Positions 46,078 to 64,000 of a stretch of 64,000 nucleotides of DNA are shown here, piece by piece; the stretch's first letter is position 1; the number at the start of each line of letters is the position of its first letter. The notes beneath the pieces were generated by a model. The model had not been told where the DNA came from, made no database searches, and saw only the letters and a list, made by a program, of their open reading frames with translations. The position numbers and the translations under genes were made by a program. Origin of the DNA: Wuchereria bancrofti (Eukaryota > Nematoda > Chromadorea > Rhabditida > Onchocercidae); contig SSBO01000001.1 in NCBI GenBank assembly GCA_005281725.1, positions 12,304,653 to 12,368,652 of the forward strand, in the 5' to 3' direction.

Positions 46078-46902
46078 TTTCTTGGATAATTAATTTCTCT
46101 TGTTTGTTTAAAATATGATTTTAAAATATAATTTAATAAAGATTAAGTTTCAAGTTAAAGACAGAAATTTTACTTATTTATGATAATATGCAACACAGAT
46201 ATAGATATGCGGAATTTCATCAAAGAATATTCATATGGAATTATTTCTTCATTTTTTTTTTACATTTCGAAATGAAAAAAAAAACTGACCTTCGTTATCA
46301 TATACAAATCCATTCCGAAAGATGGAAAATAAGAAATACACTGTCTGGTTATTATTACTTTTAATTACTGTTATTTTTAACTACTGCTAGCTTTTATTAT
46401 GTGTTATCGAATCTGTTTCCTATCAGAGGAATATTTTCAATTTTTCGAAAATATGCAAATTTGCGCAGGACAAAAGTCATGTTCCACTTTATTATGCAAA
46501 AATATGAGGTGAAACTGATCAAAATTCATGATAAATTTGTTGCTTAATTCATCGTCAAAAATGTTTCATTGAAATTGTAGAATATTTGCAATGAGCAAAG
46601 ATTATTCAGTTTAAAAGAGAAGCGAAATTGACATAGAATTCACTGTATATTTGCTTTGTGTCCCTCAAATTAATTCGGTCTTCATTTTTACTTTCAAAAA
46701 ACGATTGGTAAAAGTTACAATGTTTAAAAAATGTGATACTGAAATTTCTGAAAATCTAAATTACCCGTCCTTTTCCGTTAGACTGAAAAGTCGCAACCAC
46801 AAGATCATCAAACTAAAATTTGACTTACTGTAATATGTGTTTGTGTTAAATTCACATAACTCTCCTTCATTAAGGCACTAATTCCGGGAACGCTCTGCAA
46901 CG
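46078..46902. other. Intergenic upstream of secreted-protein gene
   Basis: No supported gene. A plus frame from an ATG at about 46720 gives 37 residues ending LKFDLL; it lies 70 bases before the next gene and could be an upstream ORF or noise. ATTCCGGGAACG just before the ATG at 46903 resembles ATTCCGGAACG before the paralogue at 63396. Confidence 0.45.
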
Positions 46903-47479
46903 ATGAAAAGCCCACAATCTGCACTTTTCACATTATTTTTTTGCATTTTCGGCACAGGCACATTATTAGCAACGTCACAGCGATTCGCTTTGGTAATTTT
47001 TGAGAAGTTATACAGATATGATATGATACTGAAAAAAATTAAAAAATCAAAAGTGCGGATTCTCAAGGAATTTTTTGAGGTTGATAACAACATTGAGGAT
47101 GATTACTTATACACTGAGCCTGCTGATATCTATGACGACGACTTTGATGACTCTGACAACGAGAACGATCCTATTTTCACTGATATTACCTTAAATCATA
47201 CCACCCTTACCTTTCTAAGCACATCGCAGGATACCGTTTCCCCACTTGCCATGACTCTCCTCACGTACTTAATGCATGAAGGATACATAACTGATGCAGC
47301 GCTACCTTGGAAGTAAGTTTACCTTCGATATCTTCTCATAAGTACACTGCTAGTATTGTTTTCTTTGCATCACTTATCAGTCCTTCTGTTTCAGCACTGG
47401 CAGACCACTTGTACTCAGACTTAATCGGACGACTGCGGGACAAAATGATGATGTAGTTACCAACATTCAAGTAGTATAA
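46903..47479 (+). CDS. Small secreted/anchored acidic protein, paralogue A
   Basis: Exons 46903-47312 and 47395-47479 join in phase 2 and encode 164 residues. The N terminus is a hydrophobic signal or anchor (ALFTLFFCIFGTGTLLATSQ). A basic stretch (KKIKKSKVR) follows, then an Asp/Glu-rich middle with runs such as DDDFDDSDNEND, and then a conserved end, EGYITDAALPWN, at the splice junction. The tail is polar and has an N-R-T glycosylation-type site. The minus-strand gene at 62704-63396 has the same order: M(K/R)S..Q start, GT..LLA.SQR, VIF, and a YI.A..LPWN junction split at the same phase. I do not recognise the family; it is probably nematode-restricted. The start is the first ATG, preceded by TCCGGGAACG as in the paralogue. 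Confidence 0.75.
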
Positions 47480-47959: not shown

Positions 47960-48510
47960 CAGCATCTCGGACCACATGATCAAGACCTTTTGCGCCAGTG
48001 GGATTAGATTATTTAGGTCCTCTTATTATCAGGAGTGATAATGGGTTAACAAAAAGATGAATAGCACTGTTCACATGTTTTACAACAAGAGCTGTACATC
48101 TGGAAATGACAGAAACCTTTTTAGCCGAAGGCTTTTTATATGTTTTAAGAAGATTTACAGCAAGACGAGGCTATCCAGAATTAATCTTGAGTGACAACGC
48201 TGGTCAATTCCAGTTGGTTTTTAAAATCATTATGAATCAACAATTAAATGAATTCCTAGAGAAAAAGAAAATGATCTGGAAAAATATAATAAAAAAGCAC
48301 CTTGGAATGGAGGAGTATATGAGCGACTCATTGGTTTAACAAAAAAGGCAATGAAAAGGGCCATTGGCAGGAAGTTATTATGGGAATGAAAATTGATTAC
48401 TCTAATAGTGGAAGTAGAAAGTATTTTGAACACTCGACCGTTAACTTACGTAAATTTTGACGATTGTGTCGTATTGCGTCCAATTGATTTCATACTGCCG
48501 AAACACCTCT
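47960..48510 (+). pseudogene. BEL/Pao integrase core relic
   Basis: Recognisable blocks in order are RPFAPVGLDYLGPLIIR, IALFTCFTTRAVHLEM, the SDNAGQF Asp region (usually SDNGTNF), AYVRL-like APWNGGVYERLIGLTKKAMK (after a frameshift) and LNTRPLTYV. Stops (for example TGA at 48057-48059) and frameshifts inactivate it. Confidence 0.85.
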
Positions 48511-48514
48511 AATT

Positions 48515-49033
48515 ATGCTTATTAATAAGGAGGATGAATTGGATGAGTTTATCCCTTATAAATTGAACTCTCAAGAAAAACTCATTCAGTATTGGTCGAA
48601 TACATTAAAGGATCTCGATACCTTTTGGGGAATATGGAAAGACGAATATTTGAATAGCCTTAAAAAAAGGAACAGAGAACATTCTTCTCTAAGAGATCTA
48701 ATAAGAAGAGCTCCTCATGAGGGAGAGATTTTGTTGGTCAATGAACCAGAAGCTCTCCGTTGCATGTGGAAATTAGTCAAAATGAAGGAAATTAAAAGAG
48801 GAAAGGATGGAGAAGTAAGAAGTGTCTCAATAGAATTACCACAAGGAAAAATTCTCAACAAACCGGTGAATATGCTATACTCACTGGAAATCAAAGGCGA
48901 GGAAAATTTGGATTCTCAACCAACAGTGTTCGACAAATCAATTCAAAATGTCGATGAACAAGAATCTATCGTTCGACGAACTAGAAATGCTATAAATCGA
49001 CACAATCAAACAAAGATACCGAACTATCCTTAA
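48515..49033 (+). pseudogene. BEL/Pao integrase C-terminal domain (DUF5641-like)
   Basis: An open frame of 172 codons runs from FIPYKLNSQEKLIQYW through GIWKDEYLNSLKKRNREHSS, GEILLVNEPEALRCMWKLVK and EIKRGKDGEVRSVSIELPQG to NKPVNMLYSLEI. This is the classic tail of BEL/Pao polyproteins. The frame itself has no stop, but the upstream pol is broken, so it is counted as part of a dead element. Confidence 0.85.
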
Positions 49034-49058: not shown

Positions 49059-49446
49059 TGTCGCGAAACTCGAAATAATCTCGTGAGTCTCCAAGTAGCT
49101 TACAAAATATATCAAATAAAATTGTATTAATCCATAACACTAAAATCAGTCTTAATTGAACATTAGAAATGTAAAACTGTTTCAAATTACATCGTGTAAG
49201 CAATCATTATTCCAGCACTCATTTTCCCATTGTAGTTGAGCTTATCTGTTTGTCTAGACATTTCCAAATGATAATGAAGGGTATGTGCATTGTTTAATAT
49301 GTTAAAAACTACTCCTTTATTCTAAATCAAATTTGCTTGCAATGTTGAAATATTGTAAAGATTTTCTAATCTAATAATAATTCTATGAGAAGCTACAATA
49401 TTAAAAACCATGTTTTATTATATAAAGAGTAAAGATCATCTAAAGG
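49059..49446 (+). repeat. LTR A of BEL/Pao, U3 part
   Basis: Starts TGTCGCGAAACTCGAAATAA and matches LTR B (50982 on) over about 390 bp through TATATAAAGAGTAAAGATCA, a likely core promoter. After TCTAAAGG the two copies part company. Confidence 0.8.
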
Positions 49447-49970
49447 TCATAGTTTTACAAATGATTCGTTATATTCACATTGTCTACAAATGCGGTGTGT
49501 TATTAGGATCACAGCAAAAGTTATGAAATTATCAAAAAGAATATGCGATTATTAAATTTAATCACAAAGGTAAAAGAATGACCATCGGCGATCACTCGAA
49601 ATAATCACAGAAGTAAAGCAGTGATCACTGGCGATCACTCGAAATGTTATAACAACTTTAATGTCACCAAACACTTTTAGAAAATTCCTTTGTTCTACTT
49701 ATTGTGAAATCACTCACACTCAGTATTACTGAATGAGAGAGCTCTTGGTGGGGATTTTGGTATTATTCACGTTTCGGTGTTCCCTAACTTGTACATTGAC
49801 ATTTTGTATTTTACATACTTAAGTTTTACTGACCTTTTAATTGTGGCTGTAAGCCAATCATTTAATGTAATAAGCATATTCTCATTTACTTAAAATTATT
49901 ATTAAACATCGTACAACAATCGATCGGAAGCATTCGTTGTCCTTTTTTCCTCTCTTCCTTATTATTTATA
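49413..49970 (+). repeat. Left arm of a large inverted repeat
   Basis: About 558 bp are repeated in reverse complement at 51816-52362 with few differences. Shared words include GAATGACCATCGGCGATCAC-like blocks, AGAGAGCTCTTGGTGGGGAT and CATCGTACAACAATCGATCG. The outer end overlaps the LTR promoter region. Confidence 0.85.
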
Positions 49971-50002
49971 CCTAACTGCAATGGCCTATTAGTGACAAAA
50001 CA

Positions 50003-50335: not shown

Positions 50336-50981
50336 TAAATGAACAGAAATAATAAAAAATGAGGGCTATGAGAGAAAATTGAACGTTGGCAAGGAGACAT
50401 GCTTTAGGAAATTAAAAAAAGAAAGGAAAAAAGTGAAAAGAAATAATATTTAGGGGAAGCTTTCGAGAACTAAGATTTAATCAACAAGAGACATAGAATG
50501 AGTGAAGTTTACGAAAAATGTAAAGAAAAGATTTCTTAAAATGATAACAAACAAATGCAAAATGGTATGAAAATAAAATTTTTTTCAAGAAAAGCATGCA
50601 AAAATAAAATCAATGATAAAAAGAAAGAAAATGTGAGTTGCTGAACAAAGAAGATATTAGCAGTGTTATTGTAGAAAAAAAAATAGCTAATTTAACAGAA
50701 AATTACGAAAAAAATCAAGTTATTGCAACAAAGAAACTATAAATTCTTTTTCGAAATTTCAAAAACAAAATCTTCAGGGAAATTAGACTAAAAAAACTTC
50801 CAACATATGTTAACCATGAGCAAAAATAGACCTATTGCAGATAAAACTCTTAACTACTATTGCAAAAAAACAAAAAAAAAAAAGAAAAAACAGGAGGTGA
50901 AAAGTAAAAACGAGGACAAATGATACTGAAAGCTAAATAATAAACCATAAAAAGCGAAAAACGAAATGTAGATAATCGGAT

Positions 50982-51596
50982 TGTCGCGAAACTCGAAATA
51001 ATTTTGCGAACCTCCCAATAACTTACAAGCATATCAAATAAAATTGTATAAATCCACATTACTAAAATTCATCTTAATTGAACATTAGAAATGTAAAATT
51101 ATTTCAAATTGCATCATGTAAGCAATTATTATTTCAACATTCATCTTCCTATTGTAACTGAGCTTATCTGCTTGTCTAGAAAATTTCAGCAGTTAACAAA
51201 GGTTATGTGCATTGTTTAAATGTTAAAAACTACTCCTTTATTCCAAATCAAATTTGCTTGTAGTGTCGAAATATTGTAAAGGTTTTCTAATCTAATAGTC
51301 AAACAATATTAAAACCCTTATCTCTTACTATATAAAGAGTAAAGATCATCTAAAGGCTCCTTACTCAATAATCATTCTCTTGCTGCAAGTCAGTGTCCAC
51401 TATATAAGGATTTAAATCCTTTATCTTCATCAGTTTTTTTTTACCAGTAAGCAAGTTAAGTTCAGCTGCTCTCTCACTCACAATTCATTTAATTCCATTA
51501 AATTCCCCATCAAGCCATCAATTTTGTTCATCTTATTCGTAGATAGATTACGAAATTATAAACAGTATTGTTGTTATAGATTAATATCTATATATT
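50982..51596 (+). repeat. LTR B of BEL/Pao, apparently full length
   Basis: Starts TGTCGCGAAACTCGAAATAA, contains TACTATATAAAGAGTAAAGA and ends near GGTTGCTAGCGAATAA, which resembles the post-LTR motif TTTGGTGCTACGAGC at 56698. It is not preceded by a polypurine tract. About 220 bp of unidentified leader-like sequence follow before the right arm. Confidence 0.7.
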
Positions 51597-51815
51597 CTGG
51601 TTGCTAGCGAATAAAATCGTCACAACAGACCTATCATTCAGCGCATTTGTCTATACCAACCGCAATAAAAAACAAGGAAGGCTCTTGAGCATACAAAAGT
51701 CCAATTCGACTCTAAACCACAAATTATATTCAGACTGAACCCCAAATTTCACAACACGGATCCCATAGACTGTTCTGCCACTGTAATATACAGACTGTAA
51801 TAGCCAATATTTAGA

Positions 51816-52362
51816 TATAAATAATAAGGAAGAGAGGAAAAAAGGACAACGAATGCTTCCGATCGATTGTTGTACGATGTTTAATAATAATTTTAAGTAA
51901 ATGAGAATATGCTTATTACATTAAATGATTGGCTTACAGCCACAATTAAAAGGTCAGTAAAACTTAAGTATGTAAAATACAAAATGTCAATGTACAAGTT
52001 AGGGAACACCGAAACGTGAATAATACCAAAATCCCCACCAAGAGCTCTCTCATTCAGTATGAGTGATTTCACAATAAGTAGAACAAAGGAATTTTCTAAA
52101 AGTGTTTGGTGACATTAAAGTTGTTATAACATTTCGAGTGATCGCCAGTGATCACTGCTTTACTTCTGTGATTATTTCGAGTGATTGCCGATGGTCACTC
52201 TTTTACCTTTGTGATTAAATTTAATAATCGCATATTCTTTTGATAATTTCATAACTTTTGCTGTGATCCTAATAACACACCGCATTTGTAGACAATGTGA
52301 ATATAACGAATCATTTGTAAAACTATGACCTTTAGATGATCTTTACTCTTTATATAATAAAA
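51816..52362 (-). repeat. Right arm of the large inverted repeat
   Basis: Reverse complement of 49413-49970. It ends in CTTTACTCTTTATATAATAA, the reversed LTR promoter region, so the duplicated unit includes part of the LTR and not only foreign DNA. Confidence 0.85.
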
Positions 52363-55300
52363 GATGGATTGAAGTATTTCAGCTTCAACAATTAATTATT
52401 GTGTTTTGACATACATTTATCAATTTAAACTGAAATGATCTAAAGAGACAAGCTATTAATGCAACGAGAAAGTACGATCAGGAAGACCAATTCTTTCCGA
52501 TAAATTTAGCAAAATGCTAAATTAATTTTATTAGAATAATTTAAATTAAATCTGCCGAAGCTCTTTGGGTAATTTTTATTAATTTGTTAATTTTTAACAC
52601 TTTGTGCAATTTGTGCATTTTTTACCAACTTGTTTTTCATGCCGAATAACAAAGAGATTTAAAGTTAAAATATAGGATACAGAAAGGATGGATAAATGAA
52701 AAATGATAATTAATTGGCATTAGTCACCAGCAGTTAAGTGCAATTTTAATCTGTACAATTCATATTTGTGTCCTTTAATCTAATATATTCGAATAATTTG
52801 CATATTTTGTAGAAATTTTCTATTTTTAGTTTTTATGACGTTAGCTAATAAACTTATTGGATAAGTGAATCACATTCCAAATGATAATCAGCAGTTTGCT
52901 AAATGTCAATTTATGCAAACTGAGTTATTAATTTGAAAGGCATAATTATATGATATTTTGAGGAAATAAATTTCTATCAAAAGTAAATTAATAATATATG
53001 ATCATTAACAGACAAATTGTTTCATATGAAAGAATAAAATTATCAAAATATTCTGTAGAAAATCATCAGATCACTAAAAAGAAGAATTTAACTATGCTAT
53101 TCATCAATTCTGGGGCTTTTTTTTGCTGAAAAAATTAAGAAAAAGGCGTTTTTTTTTTTGTAGGTTTATTATTATTATTTTATTCATCTGCATAGTAATG
53201 CAAATGATTTCGTGTTTATTTGTTTGTTTGTTCAAAACACTATAATTTGTGCTATTCAAACTTATATTTCAGAATCTGCAGTGATGAGTAAAAATTGCAA
53301 GATGATATAGCATCAGTTTGATACATATGCAGAAATGCACTCTAGTTATCAAATAGACATTAATTAGATTATTTTATGGTACCATTAATTAAATTATTTT
53401 ATGGGAAAATAAATTGAAGAAAAAAGAACGAATGTAAATAAGAAAATTAAAATATGATCAAATTAAAATAAATACCAAAAAAAGTATTCACTGTTAATTT
53501 CTTAATTTTTTAGTAATCCTGCATTGTTCTCTATGATTCATAGCATGTTATTCTTACTAGTATGGAATTTAGCCAAAAATACTAGACTGAAATCTATAGA
53601 TGCTCTGAATCTGAAAGATGACTCCGAAGGGACTTTTTTTTACGACACTTACGAGATTTACGTTTCTTTTCTGAATTAATCCATTTGTTGATTAGAGGTT
53701 CATTTACATTAATATCAAATTAATATTATAGCATTAGTTAGCCTAACAATTGCATTTTACAAGTTTCGCTTATCATTACATTTATACAAACTCTGAATTA
53801 TATATTTTAAAAATAGCGCAAATTATGGTAGTATTTATTATAATTATATATTAATCAGTTGTTGACTCAAATTTCAAATTTTCAAAAAAAGAAGAAAATA
53901 GCTGTAATAATAATAATAATGATGAAATTAATGACAATAATATAATAGCTATTGTATGGAGATAGTATATTGAATCATTGTTGATAATAATAATGATAAT
54001 AATAATAATAAATATAAATTTTACGTTATCTTTAAGTATATATATATATCATGCGCATATGTTAAGTTTAAATATGTATCAGTACGTTGCGTATGTGTTT
54101 CATATATCCCAGAATGAATTTTTAATGAACCATATTCTGCACATCAAAAAATAAATTTTGTTTGTTTCAAAATCACATAGAAAATTGCATAAAATTGACA
54201 CAGAAAGATTTCTAGAACATTTATTGCATCCAACAAAGAAATTTACCGTTTGAATAATTTTCTAGCTATCACTTTAATAAACAAAAAACATCGACCATGT
54301 TGTCATATGCATTCTGAAATTTATTCACGGTAGTGGAAGTCGATAACAGTAACTACTAAAACATAAATCGTCCTACAAAAACTTTCAAGTCGACTTAAAT
54401 AAGCCTTTGTCGACGATTTTTTCCTAACCATAACAAGGACTGAGAGGGTAACTACCACTTTAGTTTTCGATTCCTCAAACTCAAAGTTCAATAATTAAAT
54501 CTTTAATTTAATAAAATGGCTAAATACACCAACAAACTCAACAATTAGAATTTCAACAAGAGAAATTTAATGACGATATCAGTAATAAACAAAGGAGAGC
54601 GCAAAAGCCACATCTAATATTTCAACTAATGGACCCAGCTGTAATAGATTTGTACAAATGAATTTGGTATTTAAGATCGCCCGTTTTATCAAGTGAAATA
54701 GCATAGTTCAGCGATGAGATTTTAAGAATTAGCACTTTTATGGCACGCATATTGGTATAGTGTTTATGTTGACAAAAATTTAAAACGATAAACGAATATA
54801 ACACAAAGACTTTTAATGAAAGGAATTACTGTCTCTTTGTTTCCATTGGTGATATTAGCAGCAAACAATCTAAGCATTTATATATTTTTTAAGGTAAAAG
54901 AAATAAATGCAAATGAAAATCATTCCTTGTAATGTATGTTAGATTCCATTGATAAATATGTTTGTTCGTTTTTTCAACTTATGATTTTGTTTACTTTTGC
55001 TAATCAATTTGATGATACAGATGAAGCCTTAAATGGGTTGGAAAAGACGGAAATATCATTTCAATGACAGTTATTTTAAAGTTTTTGTAAAAGTAAAAGA
55101 AGTTTTTTGCAAATAATTGGTTATTGAATGTCAAATAAACAAAAATTTTCTTTATTTCTATATTTCTGAAAGAGAACGCAAGATTATATGCCCCCATTCA
55201 GAGAATAGAAGAAACATTGATTTTAAATCATTGATTAATGGCAAATTTCATTTAGGTGGAAATGTTCATTGTGTTATTCGTGTAAACAAAAGGAATGAAA

Positions 55301-56149
55301 TAGCAAAGTTAGCTAGCAGAAAGAGGAAAAGAAAAGAGAAGGAATTTGAGTCAGTTTAAAAATTGAGGAGAATTGAAGTTATTTAATTCAAATTAATTCA
55401 AAAACTCAAAGAATTACTGCAGTAATCTCTTTTGCAACATTTTTTTTTTTGCTTTCATTTCTTTTACTTAAAATATGTTATTTTATTTTGTAATATAGAG
55501 TGTAATTTCTTTTTCAACTTTTAACTACGAGCGGGAAAAAAATTCGATGTTGGGAATACACTAACAATAAACGAAAAATTAGATGTTGGTAAAAAAGTTG
55601 ATATTAGAAATGAAACAAATATATCACCTGAAATTTAGAAAATATTAGGCTGAAAAAAGAATTGGCTAGTTTTGGAAATTAGAAGATTTCAATTTAGATC
55701 TCATAATATATTTAAGATTTTATAATCCTTTTTTGGCAACAAAACTGACCAGATATGATGTTGAAAATGAGAACATCATTTTGGTCTAGCAAAAAAAGCA
55801 AAAAGTTGTCCAATCTTTTAAGTTAAAATTATGCAATGATTTTTTTCAAAAATAAATGAAACAATAACAATAAAAAAAAACTATTTATTCATTTGCTGAA
55901 TATGACATTCCTCACATCAAACAAAACTAATTCCTTTCTTTTTTTATTTCAAATAGCTAAAGGAAAACTTTTTTCCCATATTGCTTTATACCATAGAAAT
56001 TTAGCATACTTTTAAATAATTTTTATCTAATATTTAGGAATAGTAGAAGCTTAGACTTATAAAAAAAATTTAAGCTATGAAGATAGTAACTTTCATATAA
56101 TAATCGATTTATAGTTGTAGAGATGAGTTTTTTAATGCAAAAAATGGGC
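52363..56149. other. Intergenic; no firm gene
   Basis: AT-rich with an AATAAT-type tract at about 53905-54015. A segment at 54280-54800 is less AT-rich and has short protein-like frames (for example SPVLSSEIA then TAG then FSDEILRISTFMARI), perhaps an old transposon piece. A plus frame at 55117-55359 is open for 80 codons and includes GKFHLGGNVHCVIRVNKR followed by a basic run. It could be an exon or retro-derived fragment, but no splice partners or family were found. Confidence 0.4.
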
Positions 56150-57120
56150 TGTCGCGAATTTCCATATCGCGAAGCTAAATAAATGTTAACACTGCTTAAT
56201 ATAGCAGTCCATTATAATTTCCTTTGCAATGCACAGCACTCGTTTAGCTGACCTTTGATCTTATAACAATCCTATGCTATGAGCATCCACCATGTAATGT
56301 CTATTGTAACCAATTTATAGTTGCCACCCAATGTAAGTTCTTTGTGATATCCATGCAATGTAAGTTCTCATTTGTGATATCCACCCTTGCATTGTAACTA
56401 TTGTTCATTGTAACCTATTGTTCAAGTAACTCATTATCATGTCTGAACGATTTCTTCTTTGTAAAAATGTCTGATTATAAACCACTCCCACATCTTAACA
56501 TATATGATGCATCAATTTTTGTTGGATCTGTCAAGATTGTACGGTTGCTTCTGTTAATAAAGGATCATTCTCTTCCTCTGTTACCTCACATATTTACATC
56601 TGCATTCAACGAATCTCCCTGCAATCAACAACCTCTCCCGAAATAATAAATTAAATTATCAAATCTTCCAAGACAAATTTTGCTTCCACAACAACTATTT
56701 GGTGCTACGAGCTGGGACATGTCTGCAACTATAATATTAAGCGCACGACCGGCAAAAGAAAAACTGGAAGTCTTCTCAAAGAAGTCCAAGAAATGGATCT
56801 AACGCCTTTGAAGCAAATGTTGACCAGAGAAGAAACCCGTCAACAGCACGAGGCTCGAAAAAGAATTATTGAAGAAATAATACTTCGACAACTTGAACAA
56901 TAGGTTACAATGAACAATAGTTACAATGTAAGGGATTGCATGGATATCACAAAGAACTTACATTGGGTGGCAACTATAATTGGTTACAATAGACATTACG
57001 TGGTGGATGCTCATAGCATAGGATTGTTATAAGATCAAAGGTCAGCTAAACCAGTGCGATGCATTGCAAATTAAGCAGTATTAACATTTATTTAGCTTCG
57101 CGATATGGAAATTCGTGACA
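56150..57120 (+). mobile_element. Palindromic LTR-derived element with 5-bp TSD
   Basis: A 971-bp unit is flanked on both sides by TGGGC (56145-56149 and 57121-57125). It starts TGTCGCGAATTTCCATATCG and ends with the inverted copy (TGTCACGAATTTCCATATCG on the minus strand). Left to right: an LTR (about 56150-56693), a primer-binding-like TTTGGTGCTACGAGCTGGGA, a gag-start fragment (56719-56903) and an inverted piece of the LTR start (56891-57120). The target duplication shows that this rearranged form inserted as one unit. It has no enzymes of its own. Confidence 0.85.
56719..56903 (+). pseudogene. Truncated gag-start fragment
   Basis: ATG at 56719 begins MSATIILSARPAKEKLEVF but stops after 27 codons. 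In another frame the sequence reads as a charged helix (EMDLTPLKQMLTREETRQQ) to a TAG at 56901-56903, exactly where the inverted LTR arm begins. It looks like the N-terminal part of a BEL/Pao Gag with a frameshift. Confidence 0.55.
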
Positions 57121-57125
57121 TGGGC

Positions 57126-59382
57126 TTTCTTTCTTTTTTAACATTACAAAATTAAAACAAAAAAAAAATTCATTGAAATTTTTTCAAAATTTGTGAGACA
57201 TTTATAAATGCAATTAAAAATTAAATAATTTCCATGTAAGAATTAGTCACATTTTTAATAGAGAATTGCAATACGGTTTTGTGGTTTGAAGGATCAATAA
57301 TGAGAAAGAAGAGGTCAAAGGAGGATTAATAATTGATGAAGATGGTAACTACAAAATATGACCTAATTTTAAATATTCGATTTACACATAAAAGAAGAAA
57401 ATAGGATAGGAAAGGATGCATTTTCGACTATTTATTATTGTTTGCTCATTGTTATGCACTTTTTAATTGTTTGTTAGAAATATTTAAATTTAAAAAAATT
57501 TCAAAATGTGTGAAATTTGCAACTTGATTCAAATAATATGTTCGCAAAATATAAGTTAAGACAAACAAAATTAAATTAAATGCTACCAAGTTCTTTTAAC
57601 AATTTCTAGACAATTTGATCATTATCAAAGATTTTTTTATATATAAAAATGCTTCATATATATAAATTATATATAAAAATTTTTATATATAAGAATTTCT
57701 CCGTTATTTCAGTATTACTTACTTGACATTTATGTAATTCGCAACAATATGTAGTATTTTTACACGTAATATTTACTTGACCCATAATGTCTTCTTAATA
57801 TATGCTTGATTCGTATTGTTTCCTTTGTATATAACTAGTTTGCAATAAGGTTATTTTTAAAACGAAATAAGTTTTAAAATATTATAATTTTATTTTGAAA
57901 TCAAATAAAATTAAATGATTTGAAATTAAGTGATTGAAGGGATGGGACAGTGTTTAACAAGAATAATTTAGCAAATGCAATAAACAAGTGGAAAGAAAAT
58001 AAACGACATTGAAATTTCAAATATTTTTGAGATTTTTTAAAGCTATAAATTTAGAAGGTTTACATTCTCATTTAATTAGTTTTCCGCAATTATTGTTGCT
58101 TCAAAAAACTTTGATGTTTGAAAGTTTAGTCCAAAAAAAAAGCGAGCTGAATACAGATTATTCATCATTATTCATATTAAAATATATTTTAGACAAAGTC
58201 GTTAATTTTTTTCGACATTAAAAGGATTAATCATTAAAATTCGAATGAATTTAATACATGTAAAATTAAGTGATGGTTGTGTAAAATGAATTTGAATGAA
58301 AACAATTTTTTTTAAGAAAAAAAACTGAAATAAGTCAAATAAAAATAAAGTGAAAAGTTGCTTCTCTCGAATTTTACCACGTAGTTGCTGAAAAACTCAA
58401 ATCTTTAGCAATTAATTAATTCATTAAATATTATAATTCAATACTTGTCCTTACTGTTAACATTTTCTTTACAAGAAATATTATAATTCAATTCATTAAG
58501 AAAAAAAGAAGAGAAAGCAAAGACCAAGGGTAAATAGCAATGCACTGATAAGAGCATTGAAAACCGGTTGTAACATGTTTCATTCTGCAGCGATCCTCTG
58601 TTAAATAATGTATTTTATTAAATTTAATTCAGCTCAAACTTATATTTCTTCAATTTATTAAGGTTATATTTAGCTATTTATTAGCCTCAGAGCTTGATCA
58701 ATTCCAGTTTTTTATTATATTACATTATCATAAGTACTGAGCTATTAATGATTATAAATATTGAATTTAACTCTTTCAATTAGATTATATTTTATTAATT
58801 AACTTTGTAACAGTGCATTATCAGTTGCAAATTGTTTGTTTTTTCTATTTTAAAAATTTATTTTACAAAATTGATATTATGCTATTAAGAAATTGTACTA
58901 TTTCAATCAGACCATTTATCTCATAGAAATTTGTAAATGAAAGTGTTACATTTAATCAGAGGAATACTAGGTTTATTTTAAAAAAAAGCCTAAAAATATT
59001 GCTTAAAAAAATTTAATTCAATTTTAGAAATGGACAGAATTTGTTAACAGTGATAATATACCGCTTTGCTATTATGGTTATAACTCGTCCATTTCAACAA
59101 TCTCTGTCAAATGCGCACACTTTTAATCTGCAAGATTTCCAGGTTTCATCGGAAGTACAAGGAAAAAAACAATGCAGTAATTTCGTTAATTCATTACTTT
59201 AATCATATTATTAATCGAAATTTACTCAAATGAATTTTGATTTATCTTTTTAAAACGAAAGTTTTGTGAATAAAATATCGAAAATAATTATTAAAGTAAT
59301 AATTTATAGGAAAGAAAATTTTCCTAGTCACTTTTTCTGACTAATTATTTAATGAAAAAAATAATATTTAGATGACAAAGAT
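57126..59382. other. Intergenic; possible 5' exon of next gene
   Basis: AT-rich with a TATATA hairpin near 57640-57710. A 70-codon plus frame at 58009-58221 (it includes NLEGLHSHLISFPQLLLLQK) has no clear context. At 59025-59087 a frame reading KWTEFVNSDNIPLCYY after a TTTTAG acceptor would join the next gene in phase across a weak GTTATA donor, so it may be an upstream exon. Confidence 0.35.
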
Positions 59383-62703: not shown

Positions 62704-63396
62704 TTAAAGTTCCAACAGGCCAGTATAGCCGATAAATTGACCACGATTATGAGGTAAGGCACTTCTAATAACATTGACCACAACAGGTATACCATTATTA
62801 CTGCAATAAAAATAAATTATTATGTGATGCAAGAAAAATAACACTGATATTTTTATTTACAAAAAAAAGTGAAAGAAGTTAAGCTTACTTCCACGGTAAC
62901 ATTGATGCATTAATATAACGGTTAAGTAGCAATGACATGAGAATATCTCTTTCCTCTTCCGTGATATCATCCCAAGATAAGCCTTCAATGGAAAGAGCTT
63001 CATCATATCTTTGTTGCTGGAGAAAATTATTGTTGTCATTAATGTTGTTGTTAATGTTGTTGTCGTCACCATTAATATTATTGTCACCATTATTGTTTAT
63101 GTTACCGTCATCACCATCTTCATGGTTCAAGTTGTCTTTGTTAATGCTCTAAAAATTTTTGAATGGACTGTCATTTTAACGATGGTATAAGATTTAGTTC
63201 CATTTTGTTGAAAATTCCTTGAAAATCTATAATTTTTATTGTTTACTTTTTTTTCAATGTGATCAATATATTTGATTGATATAAGATTCATAAAAATTAC
63301 CGGAGCACATCTTTGTGACATTGCTAATAATGCTAGTGTACCGATAATGAAAAAAAGTAATGGTGATATGAAGAATGGAAATTGTGCGCTTCTCAT
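62704..63396 (-). CDS. Small secreted/anchored Asn-rich protein, paralogue B
   Basis: Minus-strand exons 63396-63247, 63148-62889 and 62800-62704 join in phase and encode 168 residues. The N terminus is a hydrophobic signal or anchor (FFISPLLFFIIGTLALLAMS, then QR). The middle is an Asn/Asp low-complexity tract (INNNGDNNINGDDNNINNN), followed by ALSIEGLSWDDITEEERDIL, NRYINASMLPWN at the splice junction and a tail with PHNRGQFIGYTGLLEL. It parallels the gene at 46903-47479: same start, same SQR and VIF marks, same LPWN junction at phase 2. B has one more intron, placed where A has its basic stretch. The acidic middle is Asn-rich in B and Asp/Glu-rich in A. The function is unknown; the signal-like start suggests secretion or membrane anchoring. 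Confidence 0.75.
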
Positions 63397-64000
63397 CGTT
63401 CCGGAATTCGATACCTTAATGAAAGAAAAGATTGGAAGTTCAAATGTAATTTATAATTGAATAACTTAATGATTTAGTGATTGAAACATGTAATTTAACG
63501 ACTGAAATTTAATCTGATTCGATGTTCCTTTTGGGCTAACTTGAAAAGGACTGATAAAATAAAACTTTTAAAAATTTTGATATTTGGACACTAAGCCAAT
63601 TGTTTTGTGGAAATAAAAAAAAAGCCGAGCAAATTTCAAATTGTGTGAGACGCACAACAAAATGTCAATTTGGTTTTCTTTTTTTTTGAGCTAAATAACT
63701 TTACTAGGGGCAAACGCTACAACAAAAATATTTTTTTTTGTAATGAATAAACAACAAAATTTTTATGCATTTTGATCAGTGTCATCTCTATTGCAAACAA
63801 TAAAAAAATTTCATTGCTAAATTTTTGTTGAATTATCACTATCGAAACATGAAATAATCGTTTAACATGCAAATCCTTTTACTCTATTCAAACACATAGT
63901 AAAATTTTTTTTTTTTTAAATGGCAATGAATTGGTGAATTTGTAACAATGCTCAGTTATTCTGAATAATTTCGTATAAATTAATTGGTAAGTAGACTTTT
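63397..64000. other. Upstream DNA of paralogue B
   Basis: AT-rich, with no coding sequence seen. The GAATTCCGGAACG just before the minus-strand ATG resembles the same position in paralogue A. Confidence 0.5.

What the first reader, a model, noticed from the sequence alone, without database searches (positions are those of the whole stretch)
56145..57125. Palindromic LTR element that integrated as a unit
Both ends of this 971-bp element are the same LTR terminus (the TGTC start), in inverted orientation, and a perfect 5-bp duplication TGGGC flanks them. A normal LTR element has a U3 start at one end and a U5 end at the other. Here the integrase seems to have joined two U3 ends of a folded-back cDNA (LTR, primer site, gag start, then inverted U3). 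The junction lies at the TAG of the gag frame within a CTTGAAC-type match, which suggests template switching or self-priming. This could be a non-autonomous, LTR-derived foldback family.
Basis: partly seen in the sequence, partly recalled or inferred. Interest (0 to 1): 0.78.

Follow-up and report, generated by a model that had tools for sequence, protein, structure and literature searches.

The report
One-off mirror-image LTR retrotransposon insertion
A broken copy of an RNA-copied mobile element was inserted into an animal genome with the same end on both sides, probably because its DNA copy jumped back on itself before insertion; it is real and unusual, but it looks like a single dead copy, not a new mobile family.

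Summary
Window 56150-57120 (971 bp) has two inverted arms that both begin at the U3 terminus of one LTR (278 and 230 bp; 7 mismatches in 230 aligned bases, plus three indels). A perfect TGGGC duplication flanks them. The family is BEL/Pao-like: a Peptidase_A17 hit lies between two same-strand LTRs, and 19 of 39 LTRs examined have perfect 5-bp flanks. Each 500-bp flank finds only itself in the genome, so the duplication is not part of a larger repeat. The foldback joint was found once in 86.5 Mb. Of four convergent U3 pairs among 69 listed termini, only this one has matching flanks. At the joint, two 7-nt homologies lie 10 nt apart, with filler from gag 603 bp downstream.

Best reading: one integration event used two U3 ends. 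Serial template switching in reverse transcription is the likeliest source, and end-joining of two cDNAs is the main rival. With no 3' R/U5 it is probably dead on arrival. The "foldback family" reading is not supported. Against a single template: in the U3 tree the right arm pairs with another copy rather than with the left arm.

The parts
56145..56149 (.). left copy of the target-site duplication, TGGGC
   Evidence: sequence; flank 55650-56149 finds only itself in the genome
56150..56693 (+). complete LTR, TGTCGCG...CCACAACA (544 bp here; 481-542 bp in 37 of the 38 other LTRs measured, one 369)
   Evidence: ordinary copies align to element positions 1-544/545; LTR lengths
56150..56427 (+). 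left arm: start of U3, the part repeated inverted at the other end
   Evidence: alignment; inverted pairs I1-I4
56360..56383 (+). 24-bp extra block (tandem-duplication-like), private to the left arm
   Evidence: absent from 42 of 42 other U3 rows; pattern found once in the genome; tandem array 56329-56383
56700..56717 (+). primer-binding-site-like stretch TGGTGCTACGAGCTGGGA just after the LTR (role inferred; tRNA not identified)
   Evidence: sequence; reading as a PBS is recalled from the general layout of LTR elements
56719..56880 (+). start of gag, with a broken frame, colinear with ordinary copies up to about element position 731
56874..56880 (+). joint 1: 7-nt homology (GAAAGAA in ordinary copies, one mismatch here) where 603 bp of gag are missing
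   Evidence: L004 positions 2196 and 2799
56881..56890 (+). 10-nt filler from downstream gag (the 24-mer 56874-56897 matches downstream gag at 23 of 24 in L004, L006, L008, L028 and 22 of 24 in L092; best of 200 shuffles 18)
56891..56897 (+). joint 2, the foldback joint: 7-nt homology ACTTGAA shared by gag and the complement of U3
   Evidence: joint pattern found once in the genome
56891..57120 (-). right arm: inverted start of U3; lacks 23 bp at 57070/57071 relative to other copies
   Evidence: deletion pattern found once in the genome
57121..57125 (.). right copy of the target-site duplication, TGGGC
   Evidence: sequence; flank 57121-57620 finds only itself in the genome

Best explanation
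It is an aberrant insertion of a BEL/Pao-type LTR retrotransposon, joined to the chromosome in one integration event through two U3 ends. Shown: U3 terminus at both borders, a matched 5-bp duplication, unique flanks, a gag-to-inverted-U3 joint at a 7-nt homology, and a second 7-nt joint 10 nt away. Inferred: during reverse transcription the plus strand primed at the polypurine tract copied the first ~250 bases of U3. Its 3' end TTCAAGT then paired with ACTTGAA in gag on a plus-sense template. It copied about 24 nt, jumped once more over 603 bp of gag at GAAAGAA, and went on through leader, U5, R and U3. Second-strand priming at the other U3 completed a linear duplex whose ends were both U3 termini. 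Integrase accepted it, and U3 and U5 ends share TGTYGYG. The product lacks R/U5 and a polypurine tract at its 3' side, so it should be unable to copy itself through RNA. Unit integration by two U3 ends: about 0.9. Reverse-transcription template switching as the source: about 0.55-0.6; the confidence below is for the whole statement.
For: TGGGC on both sides, exactly next to both U3 termini, chance about 1.3e-4. Perfect 5-bp flanks in 19 of 39 LTRs examined. Each flank finds only itself. Both arms share a base at U3 alignment column 188 with only 2 of 42 other copies and fall in one four-row group (support 91/87), as expected of one RNA or sibling RNAs. Two homology joints 10 nt apart with filler from the same element suggest serial switching in one pass. 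The joint was found once, as expected of a dead product. Three other convergent U3 pairs lack matching flanks.
Against: In the U3 tree the arms are not sisters: the right arm pairs with L063 (92/78), and in 0 of 200 bootstrap trees are the two arms one group. This conflict rests on one column (135), but it does not favour one template copying itself. The rest of the left LTR is closer to L011/L016 (11 of 265 differ) than to L009, the copy nearest in U3 (14 of 263). Filler between microhomologies is also what polymerase-theta end joining leaves (recalled). No relative is held, so the empty site was not seen.
Confidence: 0.57

Rival explanations
1. Two separate cDNA molecules of the family supplied one U3 end each to a single integration complex. 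Their other ends were lost, and the host joined the two internal breaks (gag of one, U3 of the other) by microhomology-mediated end joining with a templated 10-nt filler.
For: It explains the single 5-bp duplication, the 7-nt homologies and the filler. It also fits the arms not being sisters in the tree and the different nearest copies for U3 and for the rest of the LTR.
Against: It needs two truncated cDNAs in one complex and filler from gag 603 bp away. Both arms fall in one small subgroup, which two random molecules need not do. Nothing in the sequence separates it cleanly from template switching.
Confidence: 0.3
2. Two independent insertions: an ordinary element, then a second copy in reverse orientation at exactly the same 5-bp site, followed by a deletion from gag of the first into U3 of the second.
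For: It would give U3 plus TGGGC on both sides with one internal joint. Nearby opposite LTRs do occur in this genome (C9:542033 and 545978).
Against: The second insertion must hit the same 5 bp exactly. The joint has two homologies 10 nt apart rather than one simple deletion joint. Both flanks are otherwise undisturbed single-copy DNA.
Confidence: 0.06
3. Post-insertion rearrangement of a normal element, such as an inversion between LTRs or gene conversion.
For: Inversion between opposite LTRs does happen in this family: C9:542033-545978 has two LTRs with swapped 5-bp flanks.
Against: That process leaves swapped, not matching, flanks, and full LTRs. A normal element has its U5 end, not its U3 end, next to the right duplication.
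Confidence: 0.04
4. Assembly or read artefact (foldback read or inverted chimera).
For: The assembly does contain suspicious inverted copies: C12:19853670-19856178 has inverted arms 100% identical over 863 bp ending at an N. C48 has inverted arms meeting at an N. C108 repeats its flank inverted.
Against: Here the arms differ by 7 of 230 bases and three indels. The window has no N. The two flanks are different single-copy sequences, and a matching 5-bp duplication is not expected from an artefact.
Confidence: 0.03

Closest known systems
BEL/Pao LTR retrotransposons (of this same genome)
   Same: The LTR, primer-site-like stretch, gag start and 5-bp duplication are those of the family. PF05380 Peptidase_A17 hits lie inside longer copies.
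   Different: The right border is an inverted U3 instead of a direct second LTR ending in U5. Most of gag, all of pol and the 3' LTR are absent.
Solo LTRs of the family
   Same: Same U3 terminus and 5-bp duplications.
   Different: A solo LTR has one U3 and one U5 end and no leader or gag.
Foldback (FB-type) DNA transposons (recalled)
   Same: Long inverted terminal arms, little or no coding sequence.
   Different: The arms here are LTR U3 pieces, one arm continues into U5, primer site and gag, and no second copy of the joint was found.
DIRS-type elements with inverted terminal repeats (recalled)
   Same: Inverted rather than direct terminal repeats.
   Different: DIRS elements use a tyrosine recombinase and make no target-site duplication (recalled). 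This one has a 5-bp duplication.
Retroviral autointegration and 2-LTR palindromes (recalled; integrase cleavage of palindromic LTR-LTR junctions appears in titles listed)
   Same: Aberrant DNA forms made from one or two cDNA ends.
   Different: Those are circles or junctions, not a chromosomal insertion with two U3 borders.

Membership tests
BEL/Pao LTR retrotransposon (as source family) | LTR with TGT...ACA ends | tested here: met
   TGTCGCG...CCACAACA, 544 bp
BEL/Pao LTR retrotransposon (as source family) | short fixed-length target duplication, 5 bp in this family | tested here: met
   19 of 39 LTRs with both termini held have perfect 5-bp flanks (two of the 19, L009 and L012, share flanks); others are 5' LTRs of longer copies, 3' LTRs, swapped, imperfect or unmatched
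BEL/Pao LTR retrotransposon (as source family) | Pao-type aspartic protease/pol region (PF05380) in complete copies | tested here: met
   C12:18894242-18894703 lies between LTRs at 18890664 and 18896651, same strand; not present in the element itself
BEL/Pao LTR retrotransposon (as source family) | two direct LTRs at the ends of the element itself | tested here: not met
   the right end is inverted U3; hence called a derivative, not a normal member
   joint pattern found once at up to 3 mismatches; the query across the joint gives 41 matches, of which one spans it and 40 cover one side only
DIRS-type | no target-site duplication (recalled) | tested here: not met
   TGGGC on both sides
Solo LTR pair / two insertions | each LTR has its own duplication | tested here: not met
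   one TGGGC pair outside, ACTAT leader sequence right of the left LTR
TRIM/LARD (recalled) | direct LTRs, no coding, several copies | tested here: not met
   inverted ends, joint found once

The most novel reading that the evidence does not exclude
The mirror-image insertion acts as a natural hairpin locus. Any transcript across it can fold into a long double-stranded stem of family U3 (energy -452 against a mean of -199 for 20 shuffles). It could feed small RNAs that silence the BEL/Pao family in trans, so that a reverse-transcription accident would become a defence locus. The evidence does not exclude it, but no expression or small-RNA data were available.
Probability: 0.05. Interest if true: 0.75.

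Novelty: new variant of a known kind. Interest (0 to 1): 0.42.

Why it matters
If the reading is right, this is a fossil of a single integration in which a BEL/Pao integrase joined two U3 ends and still made a normal 5-bp duplication. It shows that integration in a living animal lineage need not use one U3 and one U5 end. It also records a foldback event in reverse transcription at nucleotide resolution (two 7-nt homologies and a 10-nt filler). Standard LTR finders look for direct repeats (recalled), so such insertions would be missed; the signature (convergent U3 termini plus a matching short duplication) can be searched for in any genome.

Tried and rejected
A mobile foldback family: rejected, because the joint, the gag deletion and the two arm-specific indels were each found once at up to 3 mismatches.

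Other convergent U3 pairs as sister cases: four pairs within 15 kb among 69 U3 termini (59 from the pattern search plus 10 added by hand; pairing). Three weak partial termini (C12:18288371, 19853348, 19853473) and truncated copies were left out. Besides this element the pairs are C9:542033/545978 (flanks TGATT and ATCCA; swapped duplications), C9:432291/438892 (TCTCG and GAAGC; right piece truncated at about position 273) and C108:6439/9391 (flank itself inverted). None has matching flanks. The termini list is a lower bound: the tool scores only the best candidates, and the pattern allowed 3 mismatches.

The mirror case, two U5 ends: the U5-end pattern gave 50 sites. Only one divergent pair (C12:11228964 and 11238790) was checked by flanks, and they do not match. 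Others were not checked.

C12:19853670-19856178, an inverted LTR-gag arrangement: arms 100% identical over 863 bp and stopped at an N; taken as a likely assembly effect.

An Rfam search over 55000-58500 gave nothing at the gathering threshold. A viral-contig search with the neighbouring DUF5641 ORF gave nothing. None of the titles and abstract starts listed described a chromosomal U3-U3 LTR insertion. The library is open-licence PubMed Central only, so this is weak evidence of absence. Of the papers I looked only at passages found by search terms in PMC11054761 and PMC3185758; the rest I saw as listings.

Full report
What is there. The element runs from 56150 to 57120 (971 bp). It begins TGTCGCGAAT, ends ATTCGTGACA, and TGGGC stands directly outside both ends (56145-56149, 57121-57125). 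The first 278 bp reappear inverted as the last 230 bp. Over 230 aligned bases there are 7 mismatches (5 transitions, 2 transversions, K2P 0.031). The left arm has 24 extra bases and one extra base, and the right arm lacks 23 bases. At the window's base composition a TGGGC match has probability about 1.3e-4 and any 5-mer match 2.5e-3.

The family. The genome that holds the window has 86,486,585 bases in 108 contigs, and the window is the end of contig C1. Ordinary copies match element positions 1-544/545 (LTR) or 1-731 (LTR, leader, gag start). These are lower bounds, since only 40 of 222 candidates were scored. Of 39 LTRs with both termini in held loci, 19 have a perfect 5-bp flanking match; L009 and L012 among them share flanks. 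The other 20 include eight LTRs followed by leader sequence (one of them this element), LTRs preceded by GGGAG or GGAAG (read as the polypurine tract, inference), the swapped pair L024/L027, imperfect matches, one flank of N and unmatched cases. Peptidase_A17 (PF05380, the Pao retrotransposon protease) hits the stretch between two same-strand LTRs at C12:18890664 and 18896651, among 116 matches in the genome. The family is therefore BEL/Pao-like. The best named relative of a neighbouring DUF5641 ORF is a Brugia pahangi protein (67% over 41% of the query), so a filarial or related nematode is likely (inference).

The flanks. Window 55650-56149 and 57121-57620 each find only themselves in the genome. 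The TGGGC pair is thus not part of a longer repeat, within what that search can see (it skips very common words).

The joint. Ordinary copies continue past GAAGAAA into GAACAATGCG. The element instead has a 24-mer (56874-56897) that matches gag 603 bp further on, at 23 of 24 bases in L004, L006, L008 and L028 and 22 of 24 in L092; the best of 200 shuffles of L004 gives 18. It is bordered by two 7-nt homologies: GAAAGAA to upstream gag (one mismatch in the element) and ACTTGAA to the complement of U3. The unique filler is 10 nt. After ACTTGAA the sequence is inverted U3 to its terminus.

One copy. The foldback joint, the gag-deletion joint, the 23-bp right-arm deletion and the 24-bp left-arm block were each found once, in this element, at up to 3 mismatches. 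A 141-bp query across the joint gives 41 matches: one spans it and 40 cover one side (40 of 107 candidates scored). An element that ends in inverted U3 lacks the 3' R that reverse transcription needs (established knowledge), so a single dead copy is expected.

The arms' origin. Among 42 other distinct U3 sequences (identical rows merged; two rows identical to the arms dropped), only L062 and L063 share the base at column 188 with both arms. A tree puts these four rows together (91/87, below the tool's star level; the bootstrap had not settled), but the right arm pairs with L063 (92/78) and the arms are one group in 0 of 200 bootstrap trees. The conflict rests on column 135, where the right arm and L063 have G. 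L062 and L063 are the LTRs of L009 and L012, which share flanks and may be one duplicated insertion. The rest of the left LTR is nearest to L011/L016 (11 of 265) rather than L009 (14 of 263) (25 LTRs compared). So the arms come from one small subgroup, but not demonstrably from one molecule. Two sibling RNAs in one particle, or two cDNAs, fit as well.

Mechanism. A U3 end and TGGGC on both sides, with the family's duplication length, are best explained by one concerted integration of two U3 ends. U3 starts TGTCGCG and the complement of U5 starts TGTTGTG, so both ends share TGTYGYG, and an integrase that reads this could take two U3 ends. Retroviral integration normally acts on one U3 and one U5 end (passages of PMC11054761). 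I prefer template switching in reverse transcription as the source, since a plus strand primed at the polypurine tract gives an exact U3 terminus at each end and the two clustered homology joints look like serial jumps. End joining of two cDNAs with templated filler is the main rival, and the sequence does not decide between them.

Controls. Four convergent U3 pairs within 15 kb are found among 69 listed U3 termini (three weak termini left out). The three others fail: C9:542033/545978 has swapped duplications, which reads as an inversion between two opposite solo LTRs; C9:432291/438892 has unmatched flanks; C108 repeats its host flank inverted. The assembly has artefact-like inverted arms elsewhere: C12:19853670-19856178, identical over 863 bp and ending at an N, and C48, meeting at an N. 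Against that, this element has diverged arms, no N and two different unique flanks.

Limits. No relative was available, so the empty site is not shown. No reads, expression or small-RNA data were seen. The primer tRNA was not identified. The age was not estimated in years; the arms differ by about 3%, and some differences may precede insertion.

Verdict. The family reading is not. It is an apparently rare, well-recorded accident of a known kind of element.

Noticed in passing
G000 C9:542033-545978 (L024, L027): Two complete LTRs of the family in opposite orientation whose 5-bp duplications are swapped (TGATT/TGGAT and TGGAT/TGATT), as left by an inversion between two opposite solo LTRs.
   Followed up: partly
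G000 C12:19853670-19856178 (L006, L028), C48:10-713 (L032), C108:6439-9391 (L092, L093): Inverted arrangements of the same family that look like assembly effects: arms 100% identical over 863 bp ending at an N, arms meeting at an N, and a host flank that is itself inverted.
   Followed up: partly
window 50982-51756: Apparent solo LTR (TGTCGCGAAACTCG...CACAACA) of a second, related family, with a CGGAT duplication at 50977-50981 and 51757-51761.
   Followed up: partly
window 49389-49975 and 51811-52386: A 587-bp inverted pair, 96% identical, on both sides of that solo LTR; the first arm overlaps an LTR that follows a DUF5641 ORF at 48488-49033. Origin unexplained.
   Followed up: no
window 46882-47316 (+) and 62885-63450 (-): Two similar ORF regions on opposite strands (70% DNA identity over 227 aligned bases), with hydrophobic starts, acidic middles and similar endings (ALPWK, MLPWK); perhaps a small secreted-peptide family. 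No Pfam match for the first.
   Followed up: no
G000 C1:7930859-7931375 and 8121857-8122373 (L009, L012): Two LTRs 191 kb apart with the same 5-bp duplication and similar flanks (97-99% identical pieces, with breaks); a local duplication or nested repeat.
   Followed up: partly
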